The translations under genes and the position numbers were made by a program. Below, piece after piece: positions 15,310 to 41,954 of a stretch of DNA of 41,989 nt (position 1 is its first letter; every line of letters starts with the position of its first letter). This stretch comes from Acidobacteriaceae bacterium (GTDB lineage: Bacteria; Acidobacteriota; Terriglobia; Terriglobales; Acidobacteriaceae). Under the pieces are notes generated by a model that made no database searches, had not been told where the DNA came from, and saw only the letters and a program-made list of their open reading frames with translations. Location of the stretch: positions 59,344 to 101,332 of the forward strand of contig PKUV01000041.1 of the NCBI GenBank assembly GCA_003131315.1, read 5' to 3'.

Positions 15310-15310
15310 T

Positions 15311-16810: not shown

Positions 16811-16873
16811 AGCGGAGCATTAGAAATGAATTTGCGGAAAAACGAAAGAGGGCAAGTCGCAAACGTCGAGAAT

Positions 16874-16990: not shown

Positions 16991-16994
16991 TGCC

Positions 16995-17753
16995 CTACGC
17001 CGGCGTCAGCCCATATTTCGCTTGCAGACGCCGCTCCATGGTGCGGAAGATCAGGCCGTCCACCATGTAGCCGAGGATGATGATTAGGATCATCACCGCC
17101 ATGACCTGATTCATATCGCTCAGGTCGCGACCCATCATCAGCAACTGGCCCAGTCCGAGACTGAGAAAAATCATTTCGGCTTGAATCAGCGAGCGCCATG
17201 CAAACGCCCACCCTTGCTTCATCCCATTCACGATGAACGGCAAGCTCGCCGGCAACAGCACCGACCAGAAAAGGCGGAAACCGCTTGCTCCCAGGTTGCG
17301 CCCAGCCATGCCGTAGATTTTTGGCATCTGCTTGCGCCCGTCCTCCATCGCGATGGTCACCGAGAGCAGCGAGCCCATAAGCACGACAAACAGAATCGCT
17401 TTTTCCGTCAATCCAAACCAAAGAACGGCCAGCGGAATCCAGCAGATGCTCGGCAGCGATTGCAAACTCACCAGCAAACCGCCCAGAGTTTCTTCCAGGA
17501 ACTTATTGCTCGACACGGCCAGACCCAGGATCATCCCAAGCACAACCGACAAGCTGTAGCCGATGAGCATGCGCTTCATGGTGACGGCGATGCCAATCCA
17601 GAAGCTGTGGTCGGCAAAGCCGTCCCACAAAGCGTGTCCAACTCCCCACGGCGGAGGAAAAAGGTACGGCGGCCAGATACGCAGTTTCGCTAAAAGGGCC
17701 CAGATGCCGAGAAGGGCGGAATAGAAGATTACCTGCTTAGCGAACTTTTTCAT
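16995..17753 (-). CDS. ABC transporter permease (SsuC/TauC/NrtB type)
   Basis: 252 residues from the ATG at 17753, chosen for the AGGAG 7 nt upstream; it overlaps the ATPase stop by 17 nt. Five to six hydrophobic helices are visible, with the BPD_transp_1 coupling loop around GRNLGASGFRLFWSVLLPASLPFIVNGMK (the EAA-like motif of importers of sulfonates, taurine and nitrate). It forms the membrane channel of the importer whose ATPase and binding protein are encoded just upstream. The substrate class is inferred from family resemblance. Confidence 0.93.
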   Translation of the reverse strand: MKKFAKQVIFYSALLGIWALLAKLRIWPPYLFPPPWGVGHALWDGFADHSFWIGIAVTMKRMLIGYSLSVVLGMILGLAVSSNKFLEETLGGLLVSLQSLPSICWIPLAVLWFGLTEKAILFVVLMGSLLSVTIAMEDGRKQMPKIYGMAGRNLGASGFRLFWSVLLPASLPFIVNGMKQGWAFAWRSLIQAEMIFLSLGLGQLLMMGRDLSDMNQVMAVMILIIILGYMVDGLIFRTMERRLQAKYGLTPA

Positions 17754-25269: not shown

Positions 25270-25637
25270 GGGGGCGTCACGGCTTCGACGGAGATGCTTG
25301 CGGCCAGGAGGCATGCCGGGGTGCACACACCCGTAATCGCGTGCAAAATGATAATTGCCAATCAACAGCTGGCATACGCAGCCTAATTAGTTAGGCCGCC
25401 GTTCTCCGCAGCTTTGCCCGTGGGCTGCGAGCGAACGTCACACAGCGGGCTGCTCTTCTCTGCTACGTCTGGGCAGAGAGGTTAAGACTTCAGGCTAGCG
25501 CCGACTGTTTCTTGTCCGTTCTGAGCAGCTGTCGCGAACGTCCTGGGGTAATGCCCAGGGCATGAACCGGAATAAGCATGTAGTCTCTTGACCAGTAACA
25601 TTTTCGGACGCGGGTTCGACTCCCGCCGCCTCCACCA
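25270..25637 (+). ncRNA. ssrA: Transfer-messenger RNA (tmRNA)
   Basis: 368 nt. The 5' end GGGGGCG (25270-25276) pairs with CGCCTCC (25627-25633), followed by A and an encoded CCA (25635-25637), forming the alanine-type acceptor arm; CGTCACGGCTTCGACGG follows the 5' end and GCGGGTTCGACTCCCGC makes the T-arm, as in bacterial tmRNAs. The tag reading frame is GCC AAT CAA CAG CTG GCA TAC GCA GCC TAA (25357-25386), giving ANQQLAYAA, with the usual hydrophobic YAA end recognised by ClpXP. It releases stalled ribosomes and marks the products for proteolysis. It runs towards ackA, 19 nt from that gene's stop. Confidence 0.97.
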
Positions 25638-25656: not shown

Positions 25657-26886
25657 TCAGCGGCTCACGCGTGTTGTAGCGGTTTGCACAAGATTCCAGC
25701 ACTCCCGTGCGATCATCCAGTCTTCCTGTGCGTGAATAACTAAAACGCGGACGGTCGCATCCGGAGCGGAGATATCCGCGTTCAAGGGCGATTGTGCATT
25801 CTTCCCCTGGTCGAGCCTCAAGCCAAGGAACCCAAAATTGTCACACACCGCAGCGCGAAGTTCGGGGGAGTTTTCGCCGACTCCTGCGGTGAATACGAGA
25901 GCATCGACTCCGCCCAGCACGCCGATCATGGCGCCGATTCCCGATTGCAGACGATGGACATAAATTTCAAACGCCAGTTTTGCGCGTTCATGGCCGTTCT
26001 TGCTGGCGGCAAGAATCTGCCGCATATCGCTGGAAATTCCCGATATCCCGAGCAGTCCCGACTTCTTATTAAGGACCTCGTCAAGTTGCTGGCCCGAGAA
26101 CTGTCTCTGTCGCATCAGATAGGTAAGGACCCCAGGATCCACGGAGCCCGAGCGCGTGCCCATCATGAGACCCTCCGATGGAGTAAAACCCATGGTCGTA
26201 TCCACGCTTCGACCTTCGCGAATCGCCGCCAATGAGCAGCCATTCCCCAGGTGGCAAGTCACCAGTTTCAGGGAATCCATTTTCTTGCCCAGCAGTTGCG
26301 GAGCGCGCTCCGCGCAATATTGGTGATTGATCCCGTGGAATCCGTAGCGGCGAATTCCCTGCTCGAACCAATCGTAAGGGCCGGGATACGTGGCCGCCGA
26401 TAAAGGCATGGTGCGATGAAAGCCGGTGTCGAAGACGGCGATCTGCGGCACTGAACCTAGCAATTTCGCGACAATCTCCATGCCTTGCAGTTCGGCGCGA
26501 TTGTGGAGTGGCGCAAAAACGGAAACGCTTTCGATCGCCGACTTGACCTCAGCGGTAACGACCGCGGGCTCGAAATGTTGCGGACCGCCGTGGACCACCC
26601 GGTGTCCCACAACATCGATATCGGAAGGGCCGGAAATCGCCTGCGTCTCGCCGCTCCACAAGCTATGGAGCAGGCGCTCGATGGCTTCAGCACGAGACGC
26701 CGCCGGTATCAGGTCCTTTCGGGAAACTCCGCGGGAATTCTTTATCGAGTATTCAGCCTTGTCATCTGCCCACTCGATCTTACCCTCCCAAATGCAACCC
26801 GGTGGTTCGTCGGGGAGCGTATCTCCAATTTCGTAGAGACAGCTCTTCTGGCTGCTGGAGCCGGAGTTGAGAACAAGTACTTTCAT
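25657..26886 (-). CDS. ackA: Acetate kinase
   Basis: 409 residues, normal length. It converts acetyl phosphate and ADP to acetate and ATP. Family motifs: VLVLNSGSSSQK at the N-terminus, VGHRVVHGG, the catalytic-region FDTGFHRTMP, YGFHGINHQY, THLGNG-type TCHLGNGCSLAAI, and VFTAGVGENSPELR. It follows the phosphoketolase gene on the same strand (123 nt away, separated by a palindromic repeat), so the pair would turn sugar phosphates to acetyl phosphate and then ATP. No strong ribosome binding site precedes its ATG. It converges on ssrA. Confidence 0.96.
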   Translation of the reverse strand: MKVLVLNSGSSSQKSCLYEIGDTLPDEPPGCIWEGKIEWADDKAEYSIKNSRGVSRKDLIPAASRAEAIERLLHSLWSGETQAISGPSDIDVVGHRVVHGGPQHFEPAVVTAEVKSAIESVSVFAPLHNRAELQGMEIVAKLLGSVPQIAVFDTGFHRTMPLSAATYPGPYDWFEQGIRRYGFHGINHQYCAERAPQLLGKKMDSLKLVTCHLGNGCSLAAIREGRSVDTTMGFTPSEGLMMGTRSGSVDPGVLTYLMRQRQFSGQQLDEVLNKKSGLLGISGISSDMRQILAASKNGHERAKLAFEIYVHRLQSGIGAMIGVLGGVDALVFTAGVGENSPELRAAVCDNFGFLGLRLDQGKNAQSPLNADISAPDATVRVLVIHAQEDWMIARECWNLVQTATTRVSR

Positions 26887-26904
26887 TAGAAGCTATCTCG
26901 TTTC

Positions 26905-26971
26905 GGGTAGGGCACGGCTTCAGCCGTGCCGCCCAGAGCCAACAACGATGAGGGCTTTAGCCCCTGAGGGA
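26905..26971. repeat. GGCTTCAGCC palindromic repeat, copy 2
   Basis: CACGGCTTCAGCCGTGCCG followed by AGGGCTTTAGCCCCTGAGGGA, the same arrangement as 23755-23830. It lies between xfp and ackA, where it may set the relative amounts of the two products by ending or protecting transcripts. Confidence 0.8.
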
Positions 26972-27009
26972 TATGCAGTTTACTCCTTCGGTTCATTGTG
27001 GGATGGCTT

Positions 27010-29412: not shown

Positions 29413-29849
29413 CGAATCCTGCCTTTCTATTTCATGCTGTTTCCTATCTTAATTTCTTGGAGTCACCTCCGCCAGCAGCCGAAAAGGCGTAGCTCGGCAG
29501 GAAACGACTTTCGTGAGCTGGAGGATTCGACCCGTTGCGGACAAGCCGGAATCCCGGGGAAACTCATGTGCTTTCGGCTCTTTCAAAAAGAGCCCAAGCC
29601 GAGCGATGGTGTATTTGGAATCACAGCGTGGTGTACGTCGAGTCACTGATTTTCATCTGTCACGGCCTATTCTGGCATTGTTTAACGCAAACGGTTCCCA
29701 CAGGACATTGCCAACGGGGAACGGCAGGAAGCCGCTGGGCGGCAGGCATTCCCTTTGTGACCCTTATCACACACAACCGTACCGCCCGTCATGGCTGCAG
29801 ATACCGTGAGCCTTGAGACTGGAAGGTAAGCTGAGGAGGAGCGAACGTC
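29413..29849. other. 437-nt divergent intergenic region between xfp and RsbRD-like gene
   Basis: Holds no gene I can support. It contains a short hairpin GGCTCTTT-CAAA-AAGAGCC (about 29576-29594) and the Crp-type box at 29756-29771. A stretch near 29485-29545 has tRNA-like phrases (GTAGCTC, GGATTCGACCC) but no anticodon arm. Promoters for both flanking genes must lie here; I cannot point to convincing -10/-35 pairs. Confidence 0.6.
29756..29771 (+). promoter_or_regulatory. Crp/Fnr-type box upstream of RsbRD-like gene
   Basis: TGTGA-CCCTTA-TCACA, a perfect TGTGA-N6-TCACA palindrome. Its centre is about 86 nt before the ATG at 29850. It could serve that gene and perhaps xfp. Confidence 0.75.
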
Positions 29850-30326
29850 ATGATGATGTTATATCGTCTCGTTCGGCTGATCGAGACCCACTCCCAGGAG
29901 CTGGCCACCTGCCTTCTCGATCGAGTCCAGAAATCCGAGTTGACCCAAAACTACCAAAACGTTCCACGTGAAGAACTGCAAGAACGGGTGTACGAGATCT
30001 ACCGTCATCTGGGGGAGTGGCTCATGGGCAAGGATGAACTTCACCTTGAGCAACGCTATTTGCAGATTGGGGCGCGGCGGTCCTGCCAGCGGGTGCCTCT
30101 GAGCGAGGTGATTTGGGTGATCGTTTTGACAAAGGAGAACCTGTGGGAGTTCATCAAGAAGGAATCGGTTTTGGAACGTCCGGTGGAAGTGTTCGGTGAA
30201 CTGGAAATGCTGCAGTTACTGGAGCAGTTCTTCGATCGAGCCATTTACTATGCCTCGGTCGGTTACGAACTGGCGGTCGCGGACCAAGCTCCCAGGGAAA
30301 TTAGCGCACCAGCCAAGAAGGAATAG
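29850..30326 (+). CDS. RsbRD N-terminal-like helical sensor protein
   Basis: 158 residues, start at ATGATGATG with AGGAGGAG 8 nt upstream. It is all-helical and without signal or membrane segment: LYRLVRLIETHSQELATCLLDRVQKS, then HLGEWLMGKDELHLEQRYLQIGARRS and LLEQFFDRAIYYASVGYE. This pattern resembles the RsbRD N-terminal (four-helix, globin-like) domain of stress-signalling proteins, here without the STAS domain. It may sense or bind a partner in stress signalling; this is inference. A Crp-type box lies upstream. Confidence 0.7.
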   Translation: MMMLYRLVRLIETHSQELATCLLDRVQKSELTQNYQNVPREELQERVYEIYRHLGEWLMGKDELHLEQRYLQIGARRSCQRVPLSEVIWVIVLTKENLWEFIKKESVLERPVEVFGELEMLQLLEQFFDRAIYYASVGYELAVADQAPREISAPAKKE

Positions 30327-30348: not shown

Positions 30349-30435
30349 ATGTCATGGGAGATCGAATACTCAAGAAAGGTGCGAACACCGGACGAAGCCT
30401 TGCGCTGCGTCGAGTCGGGAATGCGGGTGTCCTGA
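30349..30435 (+). pseudogene. Remnant of acetyl-CoA hydrolase/CoA-transferase gene
   Basis: A 28-codon frame, MSWEIEYSRKVRTPDEALRC then VESGMRVS and TGA. This is the usual N-terminus of acetyl-CoA hydrolase/4-hydroxybutyrate CoA-transferase proteins (family of about 430 residues), cut after the first helix. Nothing in any frame downstream continues the family. The rest of the gap to 30698 carries the hydrogenase promoter. Either a deletion left this head, or it is now a short leader ORF. Confidence 0.6.
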
Positions 30436-30618
30436 CGGCGATGGGTTTGCGGTCGAAGGCATTACTCGTACGTCCGGCAACATGAGACGAATGCGGATTC
30501 CGCTATCGCTTCTACATACCCTGAGGAAGGAACTGGCTTTCGACAAGCAACCTGATATTGCCGAGGACCGATCCTTTTTTTCAAATTTGCGGGCTGTACC
30601 CTTTTGTCACGGTTGCCT

Positions 30619-30659
30619 TGTGACCGGAATCACACTAACTCGATGCAATCTGCTCTAAT
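30619..30659 (+). promoter_or_regulatory. Crp/Fnr-type box and -10 of the hydrogenase operon
   Basis: TGTGA-CCGGAA-TCACA (30619-30634), a perfect palindrome. A -10 TCTAAT (30654-30659, one mismatch from TATAAT) places the start near 30667, so the box is centred close to -41, the class II activator position. No good -35 is seen, as expected for activated promoters. Confidence 0.75.
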
Positions 30660-30698
30660 CTAGGTCCGTGAAAGAGGCCCTGGCCCAGGGGGACGAAG

Positions 30699-31901
30699 TT
30701 GCGCGATCAGTCCAAGGTCTCAACCCGTGTTCACTCACGAGCCAAGGTGATGACAGAGAGAGTCAACCAATACGTGCTCGAAAGCAGAGATTTCCAGCAA
30801 CTCCTGGACGCCTTGATCAAGAGGGGTTACCAGGTACTGGGACCGGCGGTGCGCGATGGAGCCATCGTCTATGACGTCGTGGAGAGCCTGTCTGATCTCC
30901 CGATAGGCTGGACGGATGAACAGGAAACCGGACGCTACCGCTTGCGGCGCCGCAACGATGAGGCGCTGTTCGGCTATGTCGTCGGTCCTCAAAGCTGGAA
31001 GAAATACCTGCACCCCGCCGAAGTCCGTCTGCTAACCGCGGAGCGTAGCGGCCGGACCTTTCGCATCTTGAACAATGAACCGGCTCCGCCCCGGCGGGCG
31101 TTCTTGGGGGTTCGAGCATGCGAACTGGCCGCCATCGCCGTGCAGGATCGTGTGCTGGAGGGCGATCGCTATCGAGACCCCATCTATGCAGCACGCCGCG
31201 AGGGAATCTTCATCGTGGCTGTTAATTGCACGCAAGCGGCCCCAACTTGCTTTTGTACCTCCATGGGCACCGGACCGCGCGTGCGGGGAGCCTACGATTT
31301 AGCTCTCACGGAACTGGTCGGGCCGGGCAAGCATGAATTTGTAATCGAGGCCGGTAGCGACGCAGGCGCTGAGGTATTGGCGGAATTGGCGCCATCCGCA
31401 GCATCTGAAGCACTGTGTCGGGAAGCAGAAGCGGCGGTAGAGCGCGCCGCCTCCCAGATTCAGCGCCGCTTGGACACAACCGGCATTCGGGACTTACTCT
31501 ATACCAACTTCGATCATCTCCGCTGGGACAACGTCGCCCAGCGTTGCCTCGCTTGCGCCAATTGCACCATGGTCTGTCCGACCTGCTTCTGCACGACCGT
31601 GGAGGATGTTAGCGATGTGACCGGCACGCACGCCGAGCGCTGGCGCAAATGGGACTCCTGTTTTTCGCAGAATTTCTCGTACATTCACGGCGGCAGTGTC
31701 CGCAGCTCCGCCAAGTCGCGGTACCGGCAGTGGATGACCCACAAACTGGCCTCCTGGATTGATCAGTTCGGCAACTCGGGCTGCGTGGGTTGCGGCCGTT
31801 GCATCACCTGGTGCCCGGTGGGCATTGATATCACAGAGGAGGTCCGCGCCATCCGGGAATCGCCGGCCTCTTCGAAGGAAAGCAGCCATGGAAAACCTTG
31901 A
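30699..31901 (+). CDS. hydB: [NiFe]-hydrogenase beta (iron-sulfur) subunit, group 3b type
   Basis: 400 residues, start TTG at 30699 with AGGGGG 6 nt upstream; an ATG at 30750 is a possible internal start. Two ferredoxin-type [4Fe-4S] motifs are in the C-terminal third: [16 protein letters not shown] (about 284-299) and [16 protein letters not shown] (about 360-375). The N-terminal part ([23 protein letters not shown]) matches the HydB/AsrA family. It carries electrons between the hydrogenase core and the flavoprotein gamma subunit. Operon order beta, cNMP, gamma, delta, alpha follows cytoplasmic bidirectional NADP-linked hydrogenases. A Crp-type box precedes it. Confidence 0.9.
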
Positions 31902-32349
31902 GCACATCATCGCCGAACACCCCTTCTTCGCCGGTCTCGAGTCGCATTACACAAACCTGCTAACGGGGTGCGCCTCCAACGTGCGGTTTGACGCGGGCAC
32001 CTACATCTTCAAGGAGGGCGAGGAAGCCAACGAGTTCTACCTGATCCGGACGGGCAAGGTGGCAGTGGAGATCTTTGCGCCTCAACGCAAGCCGATCATG
32101 CTGGAAACCCTGGGCGAAGGAGAGGTTCTGGGTTGGTCGTGGTTGCTGCCGCCCTACCAGTGGAGGTTTCACGCGCACACCGTCGAAACCGTGCGCGCGA
32201 TTGCCCTTGACGGCAAGTGTTTGCGTACGAAGTGCGAGCAGGACCACGATCTCGGTTATGAGATATTGAAACGCTTTGCCCACATTATGGAGCAGCGGTT
32301 GGAGGCGACGCGTTTCCAGTTGCTCGACGTTTACAGGGTTGGGCGATGA
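31888..32349 (+). CDS. Single-domain cyclic-nucleotide-binding-like protein
   Basis: 153 residues from the ATG at 31888 (AAGGA 8 nt upstream), overlapping hydB by 14 nt. The whole chain is one Crp-like cNMP-binding domain: [62 protein letters not shown]. No helix-turn-helix follows, so it cannot bind DNA in the Crp way. The phosphate-binding cassette has GE but the usual Arg-Ala pair is altered (WRFHAHT), so cAMP binding is doubtful. Placed inside the operon, it probably acts on the hydrogenase directly, as a regulator or assembly partner (inference). Confidence 0.88.
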
Positions 32350-33194
32350 CGATGGCCACAGCAGCCACGACCGATCCCATGCTCCCGCAGCCGTATTCCG
32401 TGCGGCAAGTGGTCAAGGAGACTGCCGATACTTTTACCCTGACGTTGGAACCGTCGAACGGAGCCGGCGGGAACCGGTTCCAGCCGGGACAGTTCAGCAT
32501 GCTGTGGGTCTTTGGCGTCGGCGAGTTGCCAATTTCTATCAGCGGCGACCCGGCTGAGCGCGACCGGCTGGTGTACACCGTGCGCTCCGTCGGTCAGGCC
32601 ACCCACGCGCTGGTGAGTCGCGAAGTGGGCGAAGCCGTTGGGGTCCGAGGTCCATTTGGGACCGGCTGGCCGGTGGAGAAAACCGAGGGCCGGGACGTTC
32701 TTGTTGTAGCGGGTGGAATCGGTTTGGCCCCGCTCCGCCCGGTGATCTACGAGGTTCTACATAACCGCGAAAAGTATGGGCGGCTGGTGGTTCTCTATGG
32801 CGCGCGCAGTCCCCGCGACCTGCTCTATCGCAAGGAACTGGCCGCCTGGGCCCGGCAACGCGAGACGCAAGTGTTGGTGACCGTTGACTATGGCGGGTTG
32901 AGCTGGCGCGGTCATGTGGGCGTGGTTACGACGCTGTTCAAGTATGCGCGGCTGCAACCTGCGCGTTCGCTGGCCTTCGCCTGCGGACCCGAGATCATGA
33001 TGCGGTTTGTCGCCCGCGATCTGGAAACTCACGGATTCGCCCAGGAAAATATTTACCTTTCCATGGAACGAAACATGAAGTGCGGGGTCGGTTTCTGCGG
33101 ACACTGCCAGTATGGCCCGCACTTCATTTGCAAGGACGGCCCCATCTTTGCCTATGACCGGATGCGGCCGCTACTGGAGAAATATGAGCTCTAA
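32346..33194 (+). CDS. hydG: [NiFe]-hydrogenase gamma (FAD/NAD(P)-binding) subunit
   Basis: 282 residues, ATG overlapping the preceding TGA by 4 nt. FAD-binding front end ([23 protein letters not shown]), NAD(P) domain ([51 protein letters not shown]) and a C-terminal [2Fe-2S] motif [17 protein letters not shown] (about 251-266). This is the ferredoxin-NADP-reductase-like module of group 3b enzymes, passing electrons between beta and NAD(P). Start and end overlap both neighbours. Confidence 0.93.
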
Positions 33195-33972
33195 GGTCAG
33201 ACGCAAGCCACGGATCGCAGTCTTCAAGTTTGCTTCCTGCGACGGCTGTCAGTTGAGTTTGCTCGACGCTGAAGATGAACTGCTGGGCGTAGCGGCAGCC
33301 CTTGACATTGCGTATTTTCCCGAGGCCTCCCGTGCCATGGTCAAGGGGCCTTATGACATCGGATTGGTGGAAGGATCGATTACCACCCACCACGATGCCG
33401 AACGCATCCAGGAAGTTCGGCGGCAGTGCAAGACGCTGATCGCCATTGGGGCCTGTGCTACCGCCGGTGGCATCCAGGCCCTGCGAAACTGGAAGGATGT
33501 GGACGAATTTATTCGGATCGTGTACGCCACCCCGAAATACATCAATACGCTGAAACTCTCCACACCCGTCGCCGAACATGTGCCCGTGGATTTCGAACTG
33601 CGCGGCTGCCCCATCAACAAGCACCAGCTTATCGAGCTGATCACGGCCACGCTGGCCGGGCGCAAACCGAATGTCCCGACGTACAGCGTCTGCGTGGAGT
33701 GCAAGCGCAAGGGCAACGTCTGCATCGCGGTAGCGCAAGGCGTCGCGTGCCTGGGCCCTGCTACCCAAACGGGTTGCGGCGCGCTGTGCCCGAGCTTCGA
33801 CCGGGGGTGTTACGGCTGCTACGGCCCCATGGAGAGCCCCAACACAGAATCGCTCAGCAATCAGTTCCGCATTCTGGGCCAGAACAACGCGGAGATCACA
33901 CGCGCCTTCCGCGGCTTCAATGCCTGGGCCTGGCAGTTCCGAAAGGCGAGCGAGGAGAGTGAGCGGACGTGA
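33184..33972 (+). CDS. hydD: [NiFe]-hydrogenase delta (small) subunit
   Basis: 262 residues from the ATG at 33184 (GGAG 5 nt upstream), overlapping hydG by 11 nt. Proximal cluster ligands: SCDGCQ (about 19-22), GACATAGG and GCPINKHQL; further clusters in [11 protein letters not shown] and [27 protein letters not shown]. No twin-arginine signal, so the enzyme is cytoplasmic. It wires the NiFe site to the beta subunit. Confidence 0.95.
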
Positions 33973-35267
33973 GCAAGCAAGCGACTAGAACGATCAAGGT
34001 TGACACTTTGGCGCGAGTCGAAGGCGAAGGTGGGCTTTACATCAAGCTCAAGGGCGATCAGGTTCAGGACGTAAAGCTAAAGATCTACGAGCCCCCTCGC
34101 TTTTTCGAGGCCTTGTTGCGCGGGCGAAATTTCGCGGAAGCTCCGGATATCACTGCCCGAATCTGCGGCATCTGCCCGGTCGCTTACCAGATGAGCGCCG
34201 TGCACGCGATGGAAGACGCGTTCGGCGTGAAGGTTGACGGGCAACTACGGGCATTGCGGCGGCTCCTCTACTGCGGGGAGTGGATCGAGAGTCACACGCT
34301 CCATGTTTACATGCTGCATGCGCCCGATTTTCTTGGCTATCAGGACGTGATCCAATTGGCCAAGGACCATCCCGCCGTGGTCCAGCGCGGCCTGCAATTG
34401 AAGAAAGCCGGAAACGAGATCGTCACTTTGCTGGGTGGGAGAGAAATCCATCCCATTAATGTTCGCGTCGGAGGTTTCTACAAACTGCCGGCGCGGAGCG
34501 AATTGGCCGGCCTGACGGAACGCCTGAAATGGGCGCGGGACGCAGCCCTTGAAACCGTGCGTTGGGTGGCCGGGATGCCCTTTCCGGACTTTGAGCAGAA
34601 TTACACTTTTGTCGCTCTGCGTCATCCCGATGAATATCCCTTCAACGACGGCCGGCTAGTCTCAAATGGCGGGCTGGATATCCCGATCAGCGAGTACGAC
34701 GCCAACTTCGCTGAGGAACATGTTCAGCACTCCAATGCCCTGCACTCCGTGCTCCGGCAGCACGGCGCGTACTTCGTTGGGCCGCTGGCCCGCTACAGCC
34801 TGAACTTTGACCGGCTCTCTCCCCTTGCCCAGGAGGCCGCGCGGGAAGCCGGGCTCGCGCCGGTCTGCCGGAACCCTTTCAAGAGCATCATCGTCCGCAG
34901 CGTGGAAATCCTTTACGCCTGCGATGAAGCTCTGCGGATTATCGAGCAGTACGAGCCGCCGGAGAAACCAGCCATCGACATTCATCCGCGCGCCGCGACT
35001 GGTTATGGCTGTACCGAAGCACCTCGAGGCATTCTGTATCATCGCTACCGCCTTGACGAGGAGGGGTCCATCCTCGACGCAAAGATCGTTCCTCCGACCT
35101 CACAAAACCAGAAAACCATCGAGCAAGATCTGGGGCAGTTTGTCCCCAAGTTCTTGAACCTCCCAGAAGAGGATCTCCTTTGGCAATGCGAGCAGGCAGT
35201 ACGAAACTATGATCCGTGCATCTCGTGTGCTACCCATTTTCTCCGGCTAGAGATCGATCGGGGTTAA
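33969..35267 (+). CDS. hydA: [NiFe]-hydrogenase alpha (large, catalytic) subunit
   Basis: 432 residues, GTG start whose GTGA overlaps the preceding stop. The NiFe ligands are intact: [20 protein letters not shown] (L1, about 59-78) and [18 protein letters not shown] at the C-terminus (L2). The sequence after the L2 His would be clipped by the maturation protease encoded next. It catalyses reversible H2 oxidation. RVGGFYKLP and the overall length fit group 3b rather than membrane group 1 enzymes. Confidence 0.96.
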
Positions 35268-35306
35268 ATTTCAGCCTTGGTCAATTCCGATTCTGCTGGT
35301 GAACTC

Positions 35307-35801
35307 ATGGGGAATGAACCGCCTCGAAAGCCGAACATTCTGGTGATCGGAATTGGCAATGCCTATCGCAGCGATGATGCTGCAGGGCTGATTGCGGCTC
35401 GGCGAGTCAAAGAGCGAGTGTCCGGGCACTGTTCGGTCATTGAGCACACGGGGGAAGGCGCCGCCCTGATGGAATTGTGGAAGGACGCTGACACAATCAT
35501 TGTGATTGACGCTGTGCGCTCCGGCGCCGCGCCAGGAACCGTAAGCCGCTTCGATGCCAGCCTCCGTCCACTGCCCGTATCGATGTTTCGAAATTCAACT
35601 CACGCCTTCAGTGTTCCAGAGGCAGTCGAGCTGAGCCGCGCTTTGAAACAGTTGCCACGTCAATTGATCGTCTACGGGGTCGAAGCGCAAAACTTCGAGG
35701 CGGGGACCAATCTTTCACCAGCAATCGACTTCGCGATGCAGACCGTCGTGCAACGTGTGCTGCAGGAACTTTCGCAGAACACACCTGATTCACAGACATG
35801 A
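35307..35801 (+). CDS. Hydrogenase maturation protease
   Basis: 164 residues from the ATG at 35307; a TTG at 35277 is less likely. Family pattern: ILVIGIGNAYRSDDAAGLIAA (G-x-G-N and the acidic Ni-sensing site), TIIVIDAVRSG (Asp) and NSTHAFSVPEA (His), the three Ni-contact regions of HyaD/HycI proteases. It cuts the C-terminal extension of the large subunit once Ni is inserted. It lies 39 nt after hydA and overlaps the next small frame by 4 nt. Confidence 0.92.
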   Translation: MGNEPPRKPNILVIGIGNAYRSDDAAGLIAARRVKERVSGHCSVIEHTGEGAALMELWKDADTIIVIDAVRSGAAPGTVSRFDASLRPLPVSMFRNSTHAFSVPEAVELSRALKQLPRQLIVYGVEAQNFEAGTNLSPAIDFAMQTVVQRVLQELSQNTPDSQT

Positions 35802-35959
35802 CCTTGTATTCCCGATTGCCGCTACAGGCCCCGCTTGTTCCTCAGCTCGACCCTGTGCCGGGAATCACAGTCAACCGTGCTCCAGATCACTTCACCTTCC
35901 AGGATCGAATAGTAGGGTCGTTACTTGGCGCGTGGGCCAATTTGCATGTCCCGTTTTGA
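35798..35959 (+). CDS. Putative small protein coupled to hydrogenase protease
   Basis: 53 residues, MTLYSRLPLQAPLVPQLDPV to LLGAWANLHVPF. Its ATG overlaps the protease TGA (ATGA), the same junction as elsewhere in the operon, which argues for translation. No domain is recognised. It may instead be the decayed start of a larger gene. Between 35960 and 36008 the phrase ACGGTC(A/G)GTAAC occurs twice in tandem. Confidence 0.4.
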   Translation: MTLYSRLPLQAPLVPQLDPVPGITVNRAPDHFTFQDRIVGSLLGAWANLHVPF

Positions 35960-36008
35960 CGGTCAGTAACGGTCGGTAACTGAGGGATGGCCTCGAGGAG
36001 GTCAGGCC

Positions 36009-36380
36009 ACGTCACATAAAAATCGCGACATTCTTGAAATCCTGCGGTTCGAGTTGAAACTCGTGGAAGGCGGCGGGTATGGTCGCTCGCCACATGCGCT
36101 ATGGCGCGCCCGGTACATTTTTGAAGATTCTCCGAGCTGCCTGAATTTTAACGATCCCGCCCGGCCGCATCCTTGCAGCGAATGCCTGCTGACGCAGCTT
36201 GTTCCCGCCGAACTTCGCGAGCAAGATGTGCCGTGCCGATTCATTCCGCTGAACGACAAAGGTCACACCGTCGACTCCCTCTACCGCACCGGCACACAAG
36301 TAGAGATGGAAGAGGCCCTTCGCGACTGGTTATGCCGGGAAATCGGCCGGATCGAAACGGAACAAACACAAGGGCGATAG
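36009..36380 (+). CDS. Conserved-looking small protein with apparent ACG start
   Basis: 123 residues if begun at the ACG at 36009, which lies 7 nt after a perfect AGGAGG (35996-36001); no ATG, GTG or TTG lies in the open frame between the upstream stop (35967-35969) and a TTG at 36054. Reading from ACG gives xSHKNRDILEILRFELKLVE then GGGYGRSPHALWRARYIFED, continuous with the rest, so the true start seems to be here. A CxxC-like cluster (SCLNF, HPCSEC) could bind metal. It is the last gene of the hydrogenase operon; function not recognised. Confidence 0.7.
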   Translation, partial: TSHKNRDILEILRFELKLVEGGGYGRSPHALWRARYIFEDSPSCLNFNDPARPHPCSECLLTQLVPAELREQDVPCRFIPLNDKGHTVDSLYRTGTQVEMEEALRDWLCREIGRIETEQTQGR

Positions 36381-36439
36381 TGGGTGCAGGCTGGCGGCGT
36401 TCTGGAATCGCGCAAACACGGAACCGAAAGTCCCGGTGG

Positions 36440-37153
36440 TCAGGAGCTGGCCATTTTTTCCAGCGCGGCTTTGTTGCGGATGATCAGGGTCGCGCCCTTT
36501 AATTGCAGGAGTTGTTTCTTCTTAAACTGCGAGAACAAGCGGCTGACGGTCTCACGGGTCGTGCCGATCATTTCGGCGATTTCCTCATGCGTCAGCTTCA
36601 GCTTCACCTGCAGCGGATCGCCATTGCCCGGTGAATTGGACCATCCCAGCAGTAATTTTGCGAATCTCTCGGAAGGGGAGTTGGTGAGTCCCAGGGTGCG
36701 GATCCCTTCGTACGCCGTGTAGTAATTGCGGCTTAGCTGCTCCGCCACGCGCACAGCCACTTCTCCATGTTCACGCAAGAAGTGTAGCAAAGCATCCCGG
36801 GTAATGAAATTTGCCTGGCCCGGCTCGATCATCTCGGCGGTCACTTCGTAAGGCCGATTGGAAATCGTGGCGCTGAGCCCAAGAACATCTCCCGCTTCCG
36901 AGATTTTGGTGATGACGGTTTTGCCCTCCGCCGATGACGTCGAAAGCTTCGCTTTCCCCGTGCAAAGCACAAATACCCCACGTGGCTGCTGTCCCTCGAT
37001 AAACAACATCGCGGATTTTGGGTAGACCGCGGTGGATTTGATCTCATTCAACCTCTGCAACGCGGCCACCGGCAGATTGCAGAACAAATGTTCCTCCCGC
37101 ATCGGGCAGGCGAGACAGTTGTCGAGGATATTCAGCCCGTAGGGAGCGCGCAT
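36440..37153 (-). CDS. Crp/Fnr family transcriptional regulator
   Basis: 237 residues. N-terminal Cys motif CLAC-x8-C (C13, C16, C25), a cNMP-type beta-roll (about 35-130) and a C-terminal winged helix. The recognition helix GTTRETVSRLFSQF has Arg-Glu-x-x-x-Arg in the positions that read TGTGA in Escherichia coli Crp. A fourth Cys (FVLC) exists but the spacing differs from Fnr, so an oxygen-sensing cluster is only a possibility. It is convergent with the hydrogenase operon and divergent from osmC; a matching box lies in that gap. Confidence 0.93.
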   Translation of the reverse strand: MRAPYGLNILDNCLACPMREEHLFCNLPVAALQRLNEIKSTAVYPKSAMLFIEGQQPRGVFVLCTGKAKLSTSSAEGKTVITKISEAGDVLGLSATISNRPYEVTAEMIEPGQANFITRDALLHFLREHGEVAVRVAEQLSRNYYTAYEGIRTLGLTNSPSERFAKLLLGWSNSPGNGDPLQVKLKLTHEEIAEMIGTTRETVSRLFSQFKKKQLLQLKGATLIIRNKAALEKMASS

Positions 37154-37193
37154 TCACCACCGCTTTCAGCAAAAATTGTATCACTGATCGCCC

Positions 37194-37209
37194 CGTGATC
37201 AGGATCACA
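37194..37209. promoter_or_regulatory. Crp/Fnr-type box in the crp/osmC divergent gap
   Basis: CGTGA-TCAGGA-TCACA, one base off TGTGA-N6-TCACA. It sits 41 nt before the regulator's own ATG and 128 nt before osmC, suggesting autoregulation and control of osmC. Confidence 0.65.
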
Positions 37210-37336
37210 AATAGCCGTGACTTCAAGCATGGTCTCCAAAGCCCTCTGCGAGGAGAATCTAGACGCACGGGGGTTCTGGGAGCCGTGTAGATGGAGGTCT
37301 CCATGAGCACCGCAAGCGAAGGAAGGGGATAACACC

Positions 37337-37849
37337 ATGGAAGAAGCACATCGGTTTCAAGTAGTTGCCTGGTGGGCCTCTGGCCGGACTGGCATTGCAA
37401 AATCCAGTTCCGCGCCCAACGCGATCCATTTCACTTCGCCGCCTGCTTTTGGCGGCTTGGAAGGCAGGTGGACACCTGAGGACTTGCTGCTCTGCGCGGT
37501 CGCCAGTTGCTATACGACCACGTTTCGGACACTCGCGGAATACTCCAAGTTCCAGTACACCGACCTGCAGGTGGAAGTGGAAAGCGCGATAAGCAAGGCT
37601 GACACAGGCTATAACTTCGGCGAAGTGTTCATTCGCGCCAATCTATTGATTCCGCAAGAAGAGGAACGGGCACGGGCCATCAAGCTCTTGCACAAAGCCA
37701 AGGGGCTATGCCTGGTGTCTCGCGCTCTCGCGATCGAACAGCGATTTGAACCACGCGTGCAGGTGGGTGAACCACGAGTGGAAGTTGACCAACCTTTGTC
37801 GGTTTCTGGCCGAGGGGACGGTTATAGATCAAACCCGAAAGCGCAATGA
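37337..37849 (+). CDS. OsmC family peroxiredoxin-like protein
   Basis: 170 residues; AAGGGGA 7 nt upstream of the ATG. Two active-site Cys are in the expected places: CAVASCYTTTFRTLAEY (Cys near 57) and KGLCLVSRAL (Cys near 123), which reduce organic hydroperoxides in OsmC/Ohr proteins. GGLEGRWTPEDLLLCAVASC is the family core. The C-terminal tail after about 140 is extra and hydrophilic. Grouping with UspA and the Crp regulator marks it as a stress gene. Confidence 0.92.
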   Translation: MEEAHRFQVVAWWASGRTGIAKSSSAPNAIHFTSPPAFGGLEGRWTPEDLLLCAVASCYTTTFRTLAEYSKFQYTDLQVEVESAISKADTGYNFGEVFIRANLLIPQEEERARAIKLLHKAKGLCLVSRALAIEQRFEPRVQVGEPRVEVDQPLSVSGRGDGYRSNPKAQ

Positions 37850-37924
37850 TTGTCGTGCTTGCCAGAGCTGCTGCATGACCTAGCCACCACGGAGGGGTGA
37901 CAGCCCCAAGGATGCGGTCACCTT

Positions 37925-37949
37925 CTCCAGCAGAAACGTTTCTCTGGAG
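37925..37949 (+). promoter_or_regulatory. Inverted repeat covering the uspA ribosome binding site
   Basis: CTCCAG (37925-37930) and CTGGAG (37944-37949) flank the palindrome AGAAACGTTTCT. In mRNA this forms a hairpin whose 3' arm contains most of the GGAGG used by the GTG at 37957, so it could hide the site. As DNA it could be an operator. Confidence 0.5.
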
Positions 37950-37956
37950 GTGTCTT

Positions 37957-38871
37957 GTGCACACAGTGGAAGCGGGTAGGCGGATCGCCCTCAAAAACAT
38001 CTTGTTTGCCACTGACTTTTCACCATGCTCGAATGCAGCGCTACCCTATGCCTTGTCTGTCGCGCGCCGGTATGGGGCAACGTTACATGCGGCCCATGTC
38101 ATGCCCACCAAGGCCGAGATGGTACTCATGTCGCCGGAAAGCTGGCCGACGGTGGCCGAGGAAGAAGACAAGAGGATACAAGCGTATATCGACCAGCTTG
38201 AGACGCAGTTCCAGGGACTCCCTCACCACGTGCTGACGCCGAGAGGCAAGGTCGCGGATGCACTCGCCCAGATCGTCGAAGAACGTGAGATTGATTTGCT
38301 CGTGCTCGGCACTCACGGCCGCTCGGGCGTTGGCAAACTATTCCTGGGTTCTGTCGCCGAGGAAGTTTTCCGGCGCACTGCTTGTCCGGTTCTGAGCGTA
38401 GGACCGAATGTGTCCTCGAAACCGGACGGCGAGATTCAATTTCAGCATATTGTGTTCGCAACAGATTTTAGTGAAGACTCCTTGGCCGCGTTACCCTATG
38501 CCGTCTCCCTAGCCGAGGAAGATCAGGCACAACTAGCCTTGCTCCACGTGGTCGAGCAACCCGCCGCAGGCATCGCGGACCTGGAGAAAGTCAAGGCATC
38601 CCTAATGCGCCGTCTTAAAGGACTCGTGCCACCTGAAGCTGAGCCATGGTGCCATGCGCAATGCTTGCTCGAGTTCGGCCGGCAGTTCGCCCCGCCGGCG
38701 GAGCGGATTCTGGAAATCGCAGGAGATCAGGCAGCGGATTTGATTGTTCTCGGTGTGCGCCCCGTGCATAGCAAGCTGGGGCTTGTCACACACCTGGCTA
38801 GCACCACGGCCCATATCTTGACTCGGGCTGCGTGCCCGGTACTGACCGTGCGTGGCGGATACGCCAACTGA
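37957..38871 (+). CDS. Tandem universal stress protein (UspA)
   Basis: 304 residues from the GTG at 37957, set by GGAGGT 5 nt upstream; the frame is open from 37897. Two Usp domains: first about 10-140 (KNILFATDFSPCSNAALPYA, then LVLGTHGRSGVGKLFLGSVAEEV with ATP-binding G-x2-G-x9-G), second about 160-300 (HIVFATDFSEDSLAALPYA, then LIVLGVRPVHSKLGLVTHLASTTAHILTRA, in which the ATP loop is altered). Such proteins aid survival under starvation or low oxygen. It follows osmC by 107 nt and may be cotranscribed. Confidence 0.94.
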   Translation: MHTVEAGRRIALKNILFATDFSPCSNAALPYALSVARRYGATLHAAHVMPTKAEMVLMSPESWPTVAEEEDKRIQAYIDQLETQFQGLPHHVLTPRGKVADALAQIVEEREIDLLVLGTHGRSGVGKLFLGSVAEEVFRRTACPVLSVGPNVSSKPDGEIQFQHIVFATDFSEDSLAALPYAVSLAEEDQAQLALLHVVEQPAAGIADLEKVKASLMRRLKGLVPPEAEPWCHAQCLLEFGRQFAPPAERILEIAGDQAADLIVLGVRPVHSKLGLVTHLASTTAHILTRAACPVLTVRGGYAN

Positions 38872-38885
38872 GCCAGCGGTAGCAG

Positions 38886-39125
38886 CCTATGGTGCAGCTT
38901 GAATCCCGTGGTCCAGCGCCTGAAGGCGGATTCATTACTAATGCGCTTTCGGCACGCCTGAAGAGGCTGCGGAAAAAGTCGATTTTCGATGCCCGGCCCC
39001 TAAAGGGGCATCTGGTTTCTAAGAACTTTTGGCCTCGCTAAAGCGATGCCCTGATACGAAACCGGAGTTTTTCCGCCGCCTGTAAAGGCGTGCCCTGATA
39101 CGAAATCCAACTCGCGCCACGGACT
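38886..39125. repeat. Array of short palindromic repeats before the acetyl-CoA synthetase gene
   Basis: Includes GCGCCTGAAGGCG (about 38917), GCCCCTAAAGGGGC (about 38997), CGCTAAAGCG, and two inverted CGTATCAGGGC phrases (read CCCTGATACGAAA, about 39048 and 39092). Related to 23861-23984. No gene is supported in 38872-39200. Confidence 0.65.
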
Positions 39126-39200
39126 GCTAACCATTCGCCGATAGTCTATCCTTGAGATGGCGGTCTCCGCCGCGGCAAGATTGAGGGACGAGGAGCTTTT

Positions 39201-41954
39201 ATGAGTTCGACCGAGGCTGGTCTCGTGGGACGACCGCCGAATGAAGAGAAACAGACAGCACCAGAGAGATACGGCCTGGACGCAGTGTTTGCTCCAAACT
39301 CGGTGGCCGTCATTGGCGCGACCAGTCGTCCCGGCACCGTAGGCCGCGCCGTTCTGGAGAACCTGCTGCGCGGGAAATTTCAAGGAAAAGTGTATGCCGT
39401 CAACGCGAAGCATCCGGAAGTGCTGGGGCTCAAAACCTACGGGAGCATTCGCGACATCCGTGGGCCTGTGGATTTGGCTATAGTTGCCACCCCGGCGGCG
39501 ACGGTCCCGCAGCTCATTGGAGAGTGCGTGGATGCCGGCGCCAAGTCCGCGGTTGTGATTTCTGCTGGATTCAGGGAACACGGTTCGGACGGCGCTGCAC
39601 TCGAACAGCAAATTCAAGAACAGTTGCGGCGCGGTTCCATGCCCTTGATTGGCCCAAACTGCCTGGGCATTATGAACCCGACGATCGGGTTGAATGCCAC
39701 TTTCGTCAAAGATGCGCCCAGGGCGGGCAACGTCGCGTTCCTGAGTCAAAGTGGAGCGCTTTTGGTCGCGATTCTCGACTGGAGCGACCACGAACAAGTT
39801 GGCTTCAGCGCGATCGTCTCTACCGGTTCGATGCTGGATGTTGATTGGGGCGATTTGATCTACTACTTTGGCGACGACCCGCACACCAAGGCCATCCTGA
39901 TCTACATGGAATCCGTGGGAGATGCGCGGTCGTTCTTGTCCGCAGCGCGTGAAGTCGCACTCACCAAGCCGATCATCGTAATCAAGGCCGGTCGATCGCA
40001 AGAGGCTTCGCGCGCTGCGGCTTCACATACCGGGGCGCTCACGGGCAGCGACGAAGTGTTGGAGGCGGCCTTCCGCCGGTCGGGAGTTTTGCGGGTGCAT
40101 AATATCGCGGATCTTTTCTATATGGCGGAAGTGCTCGGCAGACAACCCCGCCCCAAGGGCCCGCGGCTTACGATCCTGACCAATGCGGGCGGCCCTGCGG
40201 TTTTAGCCACGGACTCGCTGGTGGCCAATGGTGGAGAACTGGCCGAGCTTTCTCCAGAGAGCCTGCGGCGCCTGGATGAGTTCCTCCCTGCCCACTGGAG
40301 TCATAACAATCCCATTGACGTTCTCGCCGATACTGATTCCGAGCGCTATGCTCGCGCCCTCGAAATTGCTTCGAAAGACCCGAACAGCGATGGGCTCCTG
40401 GTCATCCTTGTCCCGCAAGCAATGGCCGATCCTTTGCAGGTTGCAGAACGCTTGAAACCTTACGCCAAACAATATGGCAAGCCCCTGCTCGCCAGCTGGA
40501 TGGGAGGAAACAGTGTTGCCGCCGGCGAAGCTGCCCTGAATTCGGCGGGCATTCCAACCTTTCCTTTTCCCGATACAGCGGCGCGGGCTTTCACGTACAT
40601 GTGGCGCTACACGTACAACCTCCGCGGACTCTACGAGACTCCCACACTGGCTGACCAATCTGAGCTGGAGGGCGCATCCCGCAATCGGGTCGAGCAAATC
40701 ATTCAGAATGCGCGAAAGCAGGGCCGCGTTCTGCTCACCGAGTTGGAATCGAAGCAGTTGTTGTCGCTTTACGGCATCCCCACGGTGGAGACGCGCGCTG
40801 CGGCCAGCGAGGACGAGGCGGCCACGATTGCTTCGGAGCTGGGCTTTCCGGTGGTGCTGAAAGTCTTTTCCGAAACCATCACGCACAAGACGGATGTTGG
40901 CGGAGTCAAACTGAACTTGCAAGATGAAGCGGCGGTCCGCTCTGCCTATCGCGCCATCCAGTCTTCCGTGGCGGAGAAAGCTGGCCCTGACCAATTTTCG
41001 GGCGTCACGGTGCAGCCGATGGTGAAGCTCGATGGCTATGAATTAATCCTCGGCAGCAGCGTGGACTCACAGTTTGGGCCCGTCATCCTGTTCGGTTCTG
41101 GTGGCCAGCTGGTCGAAGTGTATCGCGACCGCGCCCTGGCGCTTCCACCACTGAACACGACGCTGGCACATAGGATGATGGAGCAAACACGAATCTTCAC
41201 CGCGCTCCAGGGAGTCCGCGGACGCAAGCCGGTCAACATGGCGGCCCTGGAGACCCTGTTAGTCCGCTTCAGTCAGCTCGTGCTCGAACAGCGATGGATT
41301 GCGGAAATTGACATCAATCCTCTGCTGGCTTCACCGGAGCGCCTGCTGGCCCTCGATGCCAGAATCGTGTTGCACGGGCCCGCCGTAACCCTCGACCAGT
41401 TGCCCAAGCCCGCAATCCGTCCCTATCCCTTACAGTATGTCTCGTCCTGGACAATGAAGGATGGAAATCAGGTTACTATCCGCCCAATCCGCCCCGAAGA
41501 CGAACCGCTGATGGTTAAGTTTCACGAGACGCTTTCCGATCGCAGCGTTTATTTGCGCTACTTCTGCTCCCTCAGCCTGAGTAGGCGTGTGGCGCATGAG
41601 CGACTGTTGCGTATCTGTTTCGGCGATTACGACCGCGAAATAGCGCTGGTCGCCGAGCGCACCGATCCCGGCACGGGAGAGCGCCGGATCATGGCCGTTG
41701 GGCGTATGAACAAGCTTCACGCCAGGAATGAAGCGGAAGTCGCGGTGCTGGTTTCAGATCAGTATCAAAATCTGGGCTTGGGTAATGAATTACTCCGCCG
41801 TGTCGTCCAGATTGCTCGAGATGAAAAGTTAAGCCAGGTGTCCGCGGAAATGTTGCCTGACAACATAGCGATGCAGGCCATCATGAGGCACCTTGGCTTT
41901 CGTGTTCGCGCGGGTGAAGATCTAACTTCGCTCCAGGCCTTCTTGGACCTCTAA
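39201..41954 (+). CDS. ADP-forming acetate-CoA ligase fused to GNAT acetyltransferase
   Basis: 917 residues, ATG with GAGGAG 5 nt upstream. Order of domains: CoA-binding Rossmann (about 30-160, [27 protein letters not shown]), ligase-CoA (about 170-470) with the phospho-His loop [11 protein letters not shown] (H276), ATP-grasp beta part (about 500-720) with the second His in [12 protein letters not shown] (H562), and a C-terminal GNAT domain (about 745-917, [42 protein letters not shown]). It resembles Pat/PatZ-type protein acetyltransferases, but unlike E. coli PatZ the catalytic His is retained, so it may also make ATP from acetyl-CoA. Fits acetate metabolism beside ackA and xfp. Confidence 0.93.

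What the first reader, a model, noticed from the sequence alone, without database searches (positions are those of the whole stretch)
30349..41954. Candidate low-oxygen survival regulon: hydrogenase, acetyl-phosphate energy genes, stress proteins and one Crp
Phosphoketolase, acetate kinase, a group 3b-type hydrogenase, RsbRD-like, OsmC, tandem UspA, the ADP-forming ligase-GNAT fusion and a Crp/Fnr regulator lie together (with 25657-30326). Acetyl phosphate and acetyl-CoA both yield ATP here without respiration, and H2 cycling can balance NAD(P)H. The grouping recalls hypoxia regulons such as DosR in Mycobacterium but is held under a Crp-type protein. As a whole unit it may be undescribed in this phylum.
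Basis: partly seen in the sequence, partly recalled or inferred. Interest (0 to 1): 0.75.

Follow-up and report, generated by a model that had tools for sequence, protein, structure and literature searches.

The report
Conserved Crp-marked fermentation and hydrogenase island
A bacterium carries a conserved block of genes for making energy and disposing of electrons when respiration fails, with matching regulator-binding sites before several of its parts, and unrelated hydrogenases sit in the same slot in different relatives.

Summary
The genes are real and the grouping is conserved. Twelve genomes of the genus, own included, share a chassis: RsbRD-like protein, reversed Crp, OsmC, ADP-forming acetyl-CoA synthetase-GNAT and, just past the window, pyruvate:ferredoxin oxidoreductase (PFOR) (some contigs are cut). 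The acetate module varies (phosphoketolase-acetate kinase or a CoA-transferase type). So does the hydrogenase slot: 3b Hyh in 2 of 12, a Hox/HydABCSL type in 1, an orphan-protease scar in 1, nothing in 8.

Palindromes TGTGA-N6-TCACA mark the island. G000 has 28 perfect sites against 1 for a reversed control. A PFOR site is kept in 20 of 20 readable same-family genomes and 0 of 6 others. The two unrelated hydrogenases of G000 and G016 share a promoter, 35 of 43 bases, though they face opposite ways in the slot.

Not shown: that oxygen is the signal, that this Crp binds the sites (8 of 16 Crp/Fnr paralogs have a similar helix), or that phosphoketolase-acetate kinase is controlled. G003's hydrogenase lacks the site. 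It resembles the mycobacterial dos/Hyh response but without DosR: a new variant of a known kind.

The parts
25657..26886 (-). acetate kinase (ackA), variable acetate module
   Evidence: PF00871 E=1.6e-134, TIGR00016 455 bits
27010..29412 (-). phosphoketolase (xfp), variable acetate module
   Evidence: XFP_N, XFP and XFP_C
29756..29771 (.). perfect Crp-type palindrome TGTGACCCTTATCACA, 86 bp before the RsbRD-like gene
   Evidence: GTGA-N6-TCAC core in 8 of 10 genomes aligned, own included
29850..30326 (+). small protein called RsbRD-like (label weak)
   Evidence: no Pfam match at E<=0.001; ortholog RsbRD_N E=0.08, below cut-off; 75-92% identical in the six relatives aligned
30619..30634 (.). 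perfect Crp-type palindrome TGTGACCGGAATCACA before the hydrogenase operon
   Evidence: promoter 35 of 43 bases like that of the G016 hydrogenase; no site with at most one mismatch before G003 hyhB
30699..31901 (+). hyhB, Fe-S subunit (start may be about 30750)
   Evidence: Fer4_22; ShyB/HydB matches below equivalog cut-off; caller start 30750
31888..32349 (+). HoxI-like cyclic-nucleotide-binding-fold protein of the hydrogenase operon, no HTH
   Evidence: PF00027 only; six-gene order in 63 of 80 loci; a CNB protein of a 3b cluster is called HoxI in PMC12319191 (passage)
32346..33194 (+). hyhG, NAD(P)/flavin subunit
   Evidence: PF00175, PF10418
33184..33972 (+). hyhS, small subunit
   Evidence: PF01058; HydD/ShyD 174 and 172 bits, below equivalog cut-off
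33969..35267 (+). hyhL, [NiFe] large subunit, group 3b type
   Evidence: PF00374; best PDB hit cytosolic NiFe-hydrogenase alpha subunit 5yxy, E=1.2e-69, then sulfhydrogenase 1 alpha; C66, C69, C417, C420 invariant in seven
35277..35801 (+). hydrogenase maturation protease
   Evidence: PF01750, TIGR00072 over cut-off
35854..35869 (.). one-mismatch palindrome TGTGCCGGGAATCACA
   Evidence: two mismatches in G003
36054..36380 (+). small conserved open frame of unknown function
   Evidence: 69-76% identical in G003, G011, G014 of the 12 islands; 0 of 80 3b loci
36440..37153 (-). Crp/Fnr-family regulator (island Crp)
   Evidence: HTH_Crp_2, cNMP_binding; 83-92% identity in the 11 other islands
37194..37209 (.). 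one-mismatch palindrome CGTGATCAGGATCACA, centre 48.5 bp before the crp start; likely autoregulation
   Evidence: GTGA-N6-TCAC core in 11 of 11 aligned, and a perfect site in G014
37337..37849 (+). OsmC/Ohr-like protein
   Evidence: PF02566
37897..38871 (+). universal stress protein, two Usp stretches in one protein
   Evidence: PF00582
39201..41954 (+). acetyl-CoA synthetase (ADP-forming type) fused to GNAT; beyond the window end follow a perfect site (129 bp on) and PFOR (255 bp on)
   Evidence: site C14:101461-101476, PFOR C14:101587-105183

Best explanation
The window holds most of a conserved, Crp/Fnr-marked island for energy and redox balance when respiration is limited. Proposed working: when the respiratory acceptor fails, a Crp/Fnr-family activator binds TGTGA-N6-TCACA sites before PFOR, the RsbRD-like gene, the crp gene itself and, in G000 and G016, the hydrogenase. 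PFOR turns pyruvate into acetyl-CoA and reduced ferredoxin. The ADP-forming acetyl-CoA synthetase (with a CoA-transferase type enzyme, or phosphoketolase-acetate kinase, by genome) yields acetate and ATP. An NAD(P)H-linked hydrogenase, where present, disposes of reductant as H2. OsmC and Usp protect the cell. Shown here: gene content, conservation of the grouping, the sites and their conservation, a shared promoter before two unrelated hydrogenases. Inferred: activator action, which Crp binds, oxygen or redox as signal, flux direction.
For: Chassis in 12 of 22 Crp neighbourhoods examined. 28 perfect sites vs 1 for the reversed control in G000; 2-28 per genome vs controls 0-5 in the 37 genomes of family f1, 0-4 in the 14 of family f2. 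96 of 98 perfect sites of four genomes lie outside predicted genes (home-made caller, coding fraction 0.80). PFOR site with at most one mismatch in 20 of 20 readable f1 genomes, 0 of 6 others; palindrome aligned in 11 of 11 island genomes while the DNA upstream differs. crp-promoter core in 11 of 11 aligned. The hydrogenase promoters of G000 and G016 agree in 35 of 43 bases, incl. an 11-base block that none of the other 194 site directions of four genomes has with fewer than 5 mismatches. Site-linked genes found in all four genomes compared are PFOR, a 4Fe-4S ferredoxin, a crp gene (mostly the L063-type paralog; the island crp in G009) and a glycyl-tRNA synthetase. About 11 of the 30 proteins scanned are redox or energy proteins: PFOR, DHOD-like, molybdopterin oxidoreductase, iron permease/FtrD, radical SAM, cytochromes c and b, malic enzyme-phosphotransacetylase fusion, 2-oxoacid:ferredoxin oxidoreductase, ferredoxin, Zn-dehydrogenase.
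Against: No expression data. G003's 3b operon has no site with at most one mismatch before it. No conserved site before phosphoketolase in the 4 genomes compared. Six f1 genomes (G005, G008, G013, G025, G031, G035) have 2-13 perfect sites without a close Crp, and same-class G058 has 12. Of the 30 site-linked proteins scanned, about 17 are neither redox/energy proteins nor Crp (two class II tRNA synthetases, DnaB at 486 bp, secretion ATPase, TPR proteins, outer membrane barrel, transposase, histidine kinase, sigma factor, four without a family), so the site set is broader than an oxygen response. In the window, matches with up to two mismatches are no more than chance (11 vs 13.9). Scan P for the island's three perfect sites is 0.038. 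The slot has no hydrogenase in 9 of 12.
Confidence: 0.65

Rival explanations
1. The sites report carbon or energy status (a catabolite or starvation regulon with a small-molecule ligand), not oxygen; the fermentation genes are part of a wider overflow and starvation response.
For: The sites look like the E. coli CRP consensus rather than the FNR one (recalled); TTGA-N6-TCAA with up to one mismatch is not enriched in the window (11 found, 14.9 expected). Site-linked genes include tRNA synthetases and a secretion ATPase.
Against: In the printed alignments with the best-matching Crp/Fnr chains (4cyd, 4byy) the Glu and Arg of the ligand pocket are not kept in the window Crp (that these contact cAMP is recalled), while C-x2-C-x8-C plus a fourth Cys is kept in 12 of 12 orthologs aligned. 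PFOR and ferredoxin are among the most widely shared targets.
Confidence: 0.25
2. Several Crp paralogs share the site; the island's own Crp regulates only itself or answers another signal, and the genes are neighbours for other reasons rather than as one regulon.
For: 8 of 16 Crp/Fnr proteins have R-E-x-x-S/T-R; two other paralogs also lie beside perfect sites (L059, L063); six f1 genomes have sites without a close Crp.
Against: Family f2 has 0 of 14 close Crp matches and 0-4 sites per genome; the crp promoter core is kept in 11 of 11 aligned islands.
Confidence: 0.3
3. The hydrogenase is an independent NADPH-linked uptake or sulfhydrogenase enzyme that landed here by transfer, with no functional tie to the island.
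For: The operon occurs in many phyla with other flanks: among the 80 loci kept (3.5-21 kb long), phosphoketolase 0, acetate kinase 0, Crp 0, OsmC 0, Usp 4, synthetase 7, PFOR 4. In the genus it also lies elsewhere in G004, G009, G017 and G021. G003's copy has no site, and G016's enzyme faces the other way.
Against: Two unrelated hydrogenases occupy the slot with promoters alike in 35 of 43 bases, and G012 keeps an orphan protease there.
Confidence: 0.15

Closest known systems
Mycobacterium smegmatis dos regulon with hydrogenase Hyh
   Same: [quoted passage not shown] a DosR-type cluster and a pyruvate or 2-oxoglutarate:ferredoxin oxidoreductase rise at low oxygen (PMC2799521, passages). That Hyh is group 3b is recalled.
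   Different: The regulator there is the DosR response regulator; here Crp/Fnr-type sites and a Crp. No response-regulator domain among the island proteins scanned. Here PFOR and the ADP-forming synthetase are joined to the hydrogenase locus.
E. coli-type CRP and FNR regulons
   Same: Crp/Fnr family protein, near-consensus CRP palindrome, spacing that fits class I and II promoters (inference).
   Different: Ligand-pocket residues of Crp-type chains not kept; cysteine spacing unlike that recalled for FNR; signal unknown.
Soluble 3b hydrogenase / sulfhydrogenase I and II of archaea
   Same: Same four subunit types; best solved-structure matches.
   Different: Extra HoxI-like gene in the operon; scores far below the archaeal equivalog cut-offs.
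HoxEFUYH / HydABCSL hydrogenases
   Same: G016 slot enzyme: NuoE-, NuoF- and HoxU-like subunits plus small and large subunit; large subunit best hit 7t2r, E=7.5e-150, then 5xf9.
   Different: In G016, not in the window; bifurcating versus bidirectional type not resolved.
PatZ/Pka-type protein acetyltransferase (9it0; the PatZ name is recalled)
   Same: Aligns over nearly the whole synthetase-GNAT protein, E=3.1e-146.
   Different: The window protein keeps the SHTG loop of ADP-forming synthetases, which 9it0 lacks.

Membership tests
Group 3b [NiFe]-hydrogenase | Large subunit with both CxxC nickel motifs | tested here: met
   C66, C69, C417, C420 invariant in seven sequences
Group 3b [NiFe]-hydrogenase | hyhB-G-S-L composition and closest relation to sulfhydrogenases I/II | tested here: met
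Group 3b [NiFe]-hydrogenase | HydDB classification and NAD(P)H-linked activity | not testable with these tools
   no HydDB, no assay
DosR regulon | DosR response regulator controls the genes | tested here: not met
   no response-regulator domain in the island proteins scanned; the genome elsewhere was not searched for DosR
CRP (cAMP receptor) | Ligand-pocket Glu and Arg | tested here: not met
   alignments with 4cyd and 4byy; the role of these residues is recalled
FNR (4Fe-4S oxygen sensor) | Four cluster cysteines | tested here: inconclusive
   C-x2-C-x8-C plus one Cys in 12 of 12 aligned orthologs; spacing unlike recalled E. coli FNR, and no Cys at the later position where paralogs L073, L075, L076 and L078 have one
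Crp/Fnr regulon | Conserved binding sites before the genes | tested here: met
   PFOR, crp and RsbRD-like promoters; not met for phosphoketolase and for G003 hyhB
Crp/Fnr regulon | Transcripts depend on the regulator | not testable with these tools
   no expression data
ADP-forming acetyl-CoA synthetase | Phospho-histidine loop | tested here: met
   SHTG aligned with 2csu, 4xyl and 8wzu, missing in 9it0 and 9isq; that this His is phosphorylated is recalled

The most novel reading that the evidence does not exclude
A regulatory 'socket': a Crp-marked fermentation chassis whose electron-sink and acetate modules are exchanged as cassettes, with one hydrogenase promoter serving evolutionarily separate [NiFe] types (carried across by recombination or inversion, since the enzymes of G000 and G016 face opposite ways), and with the island Crp being a four-cysteine redox sensor distinct from both CRP and FNR. 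Odds lowered from 0.3 in my draft because of the opposite orientation, which the draft had missed.
Probability: 0.25. Interest if true: 0.75.

Novelty: new variant of a known kind. Interest (0 to 1): 0.55.

Why it matters
How mostly uncultured soil and peat bacteria of this sort get through loss of oxygen is poorly known (general knowledge). The conserved sites give a testable site-defined gene set: PFOR, ferredoxin, acetate-forming enzymes and, in some genomes, a hydrogenase. A shared promoter before two unrelated hydrogenases in one slot would be a clear case of cassette exchange under one control, and predicts H2 release by such organisms under anoxia. Judged from titles and abstract openings, the listings (20 of 324 listed) show no paper on this unit; the library holds only open-licence papers.

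Tried and rejected
Rejected: (1) an FNR-type site set: TTGA-N6-TCAA not enriched in the window. (3) A purely PatZ-like, synthetase-dead reading of the synthetase-GNAT fusion. (4) The CNB protein as a DNA-binding regulator: no HTH, such a protein is called HoxI in print (passage). (5) General Crp control of 3b operons: of 63 with readable upstream, 7 have a Crp-type site with at most one mismatch (0.65 expected from shuffles) and 5 an FNR-type one (TTGAT-N4-ATCAA, 1.2 expected), so recurrent but a minority. (6) Fold of the RsbRD-like protein: single-sequence model, mean pLDDT 43, not used. (7) Three perfect sites within 12.4 kb as sole proof: scan P=0.038. (8) In-place exchange of hydrogenases behind a fixed promoter: my draft said so, but in G016 the operon faces the other way and its promoter is at the Crp end of the slot.

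Rows dropped: the 20 neighbourhoods were picked from the matches (34 genomes); same-genus G019, G021 and G023 had a match but were not examined. One search examined 27 of the 34 genomes with a PFOR match; G010 was unreadable upstream; G007, G059, G019, G021, G048 and G050 had only fragments, and G014 was read. In one search G006 and G016 had no readable RsbRD-like promoter, and the G014 slice missed the crp site, read. One search aligned G028 but not G014. In one search Crp, synthetase, PFOR and phosphoketolase hits of 150 residues or less were left out. In one search a site counted as inside a gene only if more than 30 bases from its ends. The gene caller is home-made; starts are approximate.


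Full report
WHAT IS THERE. The window is G000:C14:59344-101332 of a 6.0 Mb genome in 194 contigs. The Usp is one protein with two Usp stretches; the RsbRD label is weak. The phylum is not given: a named Terriglobia record (L157) has a 3b operon 86% identical in DNA to that of same-genus G017, which fits Acidobacteriota but does not prove it.

BEYOND THE WINDOW. A perfect palindrome at C14:101461-101476 and PFOR at C14:101587 follow the synthetase-GNAT gene, then a DHOD-like protein. PFOR matches TIGR02176 with 1872 bits (cut-off 911).

CONSERVATION. Of 22 Crp neighbourhoods examined (G000, G003 and the 20), 12 have the island: G000, G003, G004, G006, G007, G009, G011, G012, G014, G016, G017, G018. 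Within these 12: synthetase-GNAT 12; Crp 12 (83-92% identical to the window's in the 11 relatives); OsmC 11; PFOR beside it 11 (G007's contig ends first); RsbRD-like 10 (G006 and G016 are cut by contig ends); DHOD-like 9 (G007, G014 and G018 are cut); Usp 7. The acetate module is phosphoketolase-acetate kinase in 4 (G000, G009, G011, G014), only an acetate kinase fragment in G004, and an acetyl-CoA hydrolase/transferase-family protein in 7 (G003's has butyryl-CoA:acetate CoA-transferase as best NCBIfam match, below cut-off). The other 10 neighbourhoods (G001, G002, G010, G015, G020, G022, G026, G028, G033, G034) lack the synthetase-PFOR block beside Crp; G022 and G028 keep OsmC, G028 also the transferase type. 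G020 has synthetase, site, PFOR and the transferase type elsewhere, its best Crp being 55% identical.

HYDROGENASE SLOT. G000 has the 3b operon between the RsbRD-like gene and Crp, G003 between the transferase type and Crp. G016 has, between the transferase type and Crp, an enzyme with NuoE-, NuoF- and HoxU-like parts whose large subunit is nearest 7t2r and 5xf9 and 29% identical to the window's. It faces the other way: with the synthetase on the plus strand, hyh reads plus and G016's operon minus, its promoter being next to crp. G012 keeps an orphan protease there, 68% identical to G016's. The other 8 have no hydrogenase match in the slot; G004, G009 and G017 carry 3b operons elsewhere. Outside the genus, in the 80 loci kept, hyhB-CNB-hyhG-hyhS-hyhL-protease in this order is found in 63, with other flanks.

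SITES. In the window, sites with at most one mismatch number four, none inside a predicted gene, all between 29.7 and 37.3 kb. With two mismatches allowed the count is no higher than chance (11 vs 13.9). Genome-wide, 28 perfect sites vs 1 for the reversed pattern. In family f1 (37 genomes) 2-28 per genome, controls 0-5; in f2 (14 genomes) 0-4; in 10 other same-class genomes 0-12, the 12 being G058. Crp matches at E<=1e-60: 31 of 37 in f1, 0 of 14 in f2, 3 of 10 others, G058 not among them. So sites and close Crp go together only roughly. In four genomes 2 of 98 perfect sites fall inside predicted genes.

FOOTPRINTS. Before PFOR the palindrome aligns in 11 of 11 island genomes (10 perfect) while upstream DNA differs, followed by conserved CCGACA and CATnCT blocks about 17 bp apart, which would put the site about 60-65 bp before the start of transcription, a class I position (inference). 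Across f1, 20 of 20 readable PFOR genes have a site with at most one mismatch in the 300 bp upstream (17 perfect); 0 of 6 genomes outside f1 do. Before crp the core GTGA-N6-TCAC stands in 11 of 11 aligned; before the RsbRD-like gene in 8 of 10. The hydrogenase promoters of G000 and G016 agree in 35 of 43 bases: palindrome 15 of 16, spacer 9 of 16, and TGCTCTAATCT 11 of 11 at the same distance, which fits a class II position near -41 (inference). Among 195 site directions in four genomes, only G000's hydrogenase promoter has this block there; the next best has 5 mismatches. Common descent of the two promoters is thus likely, though their ends of the slot differ. G003's 3b operon has no site with at most one mismatch before it; it may be read from the RsbRD-like promoter (guess). 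Phosphoketolase has no conserved site.

REGULATOR. The genome has 16 Crp/Fnr proteins over the PF13545 cut-off; 8, the island one included, have R-E-x-x-S/T-R in the recognition helix. Twelve orthologs of the island Crp (11 island genomes and G028) keep C-x2-C-x8-C, a fourth Cys and RETVSR. A redox or cluster sensor is plausible but unproven, and which paralog binds is open.

ENERGY LOGIC. From known pathways: PFOR gives acetyl-CoA and reduced ferredoxin; the synthetase, whose SHTG loop is kept, gives ATP; phosphoketolase-acetate kinase gives ATP from sugar phosphates; hydrogenase removes reductant. A HypD maturation gene is in the genome. How ferredoxin electrons reach the NAD(P)-linked 3b enzyme is unknown.

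COMPARISON. In M. smegmatis the dos regulon includes Hyh and Usp proteins (PMC8125079, passages); low oxygen raises a DosR-type cluster and a ferredoxin-linked oxidoreductase (PMC2799521, passages). Peat Terracidiphilus MAGs are reported to encode 3b and 3d hydrogenases (PMC9599518, passages). So the parts are known; the joined, site-marked island was not seen in the listings (titles and abstract openings only; two searches listed 20 of 324 and 12 of 22).

VERDICT. Grouping and Crp-type marking are well supported within one genus; oxygen control and the single Crp remain hypotheses.

Noticed in passing
window 36054-36380: Small open frame with an HPCSECLL motif between the protease and crp; also in the islands of G003, G011 and G014 (69-76%), absent from 80 3b loci.
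   Followed up: partly
L063 (G000:C141:79001-97000), 5828-12811: Another Crp paralog divergent from a malic enzyme-phosphotransacetylase fusion, with two perfect palindromes between them, and a 2-oxoacid:ferredoxin oxidoreductase alpha subunit with its own site nearby.
   Followed up: partly
L180 (G002), 4956-18022: Two Crp-like genes with one perfect and two one-mismatch sites, next to multihaem cytochromes c, one with a cytochrome b561 domain, and near a second type of [NiFe] hydrogenase; L181 (G001) looks similar.
   Followed up: partly
L068 (G000:C184), 70-1412: Two perfect palindromes before a dehydrogenase over the cut-off of 6-hydroxycyclohex-1-ene-1-carbonyl-CoA dehydrogenase, which hints at anaerobic aromatic degradation.
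   Followed up: no
L058 (G000:C126), 3881-6101: Perfect palindrome about 50 bp before a glycyl-tRNA synthetase beta gene, kept at 50-53 bp in G003, G009 and G015; reason unknown.
   Followed up: no
window 25270-25637: tmRNA gene with tag ANQQLAYAA beside the acetate kinase gene.
   Followed up: no
L109, L154: 3b loci with PFOR and DHOD-like genes in the fetched stretch, in an unnamed bacterium (L109, also a malic enzyme-phosphotransacetylase relative) and an Acidimicrobiia record (L154).
   Followed up: no
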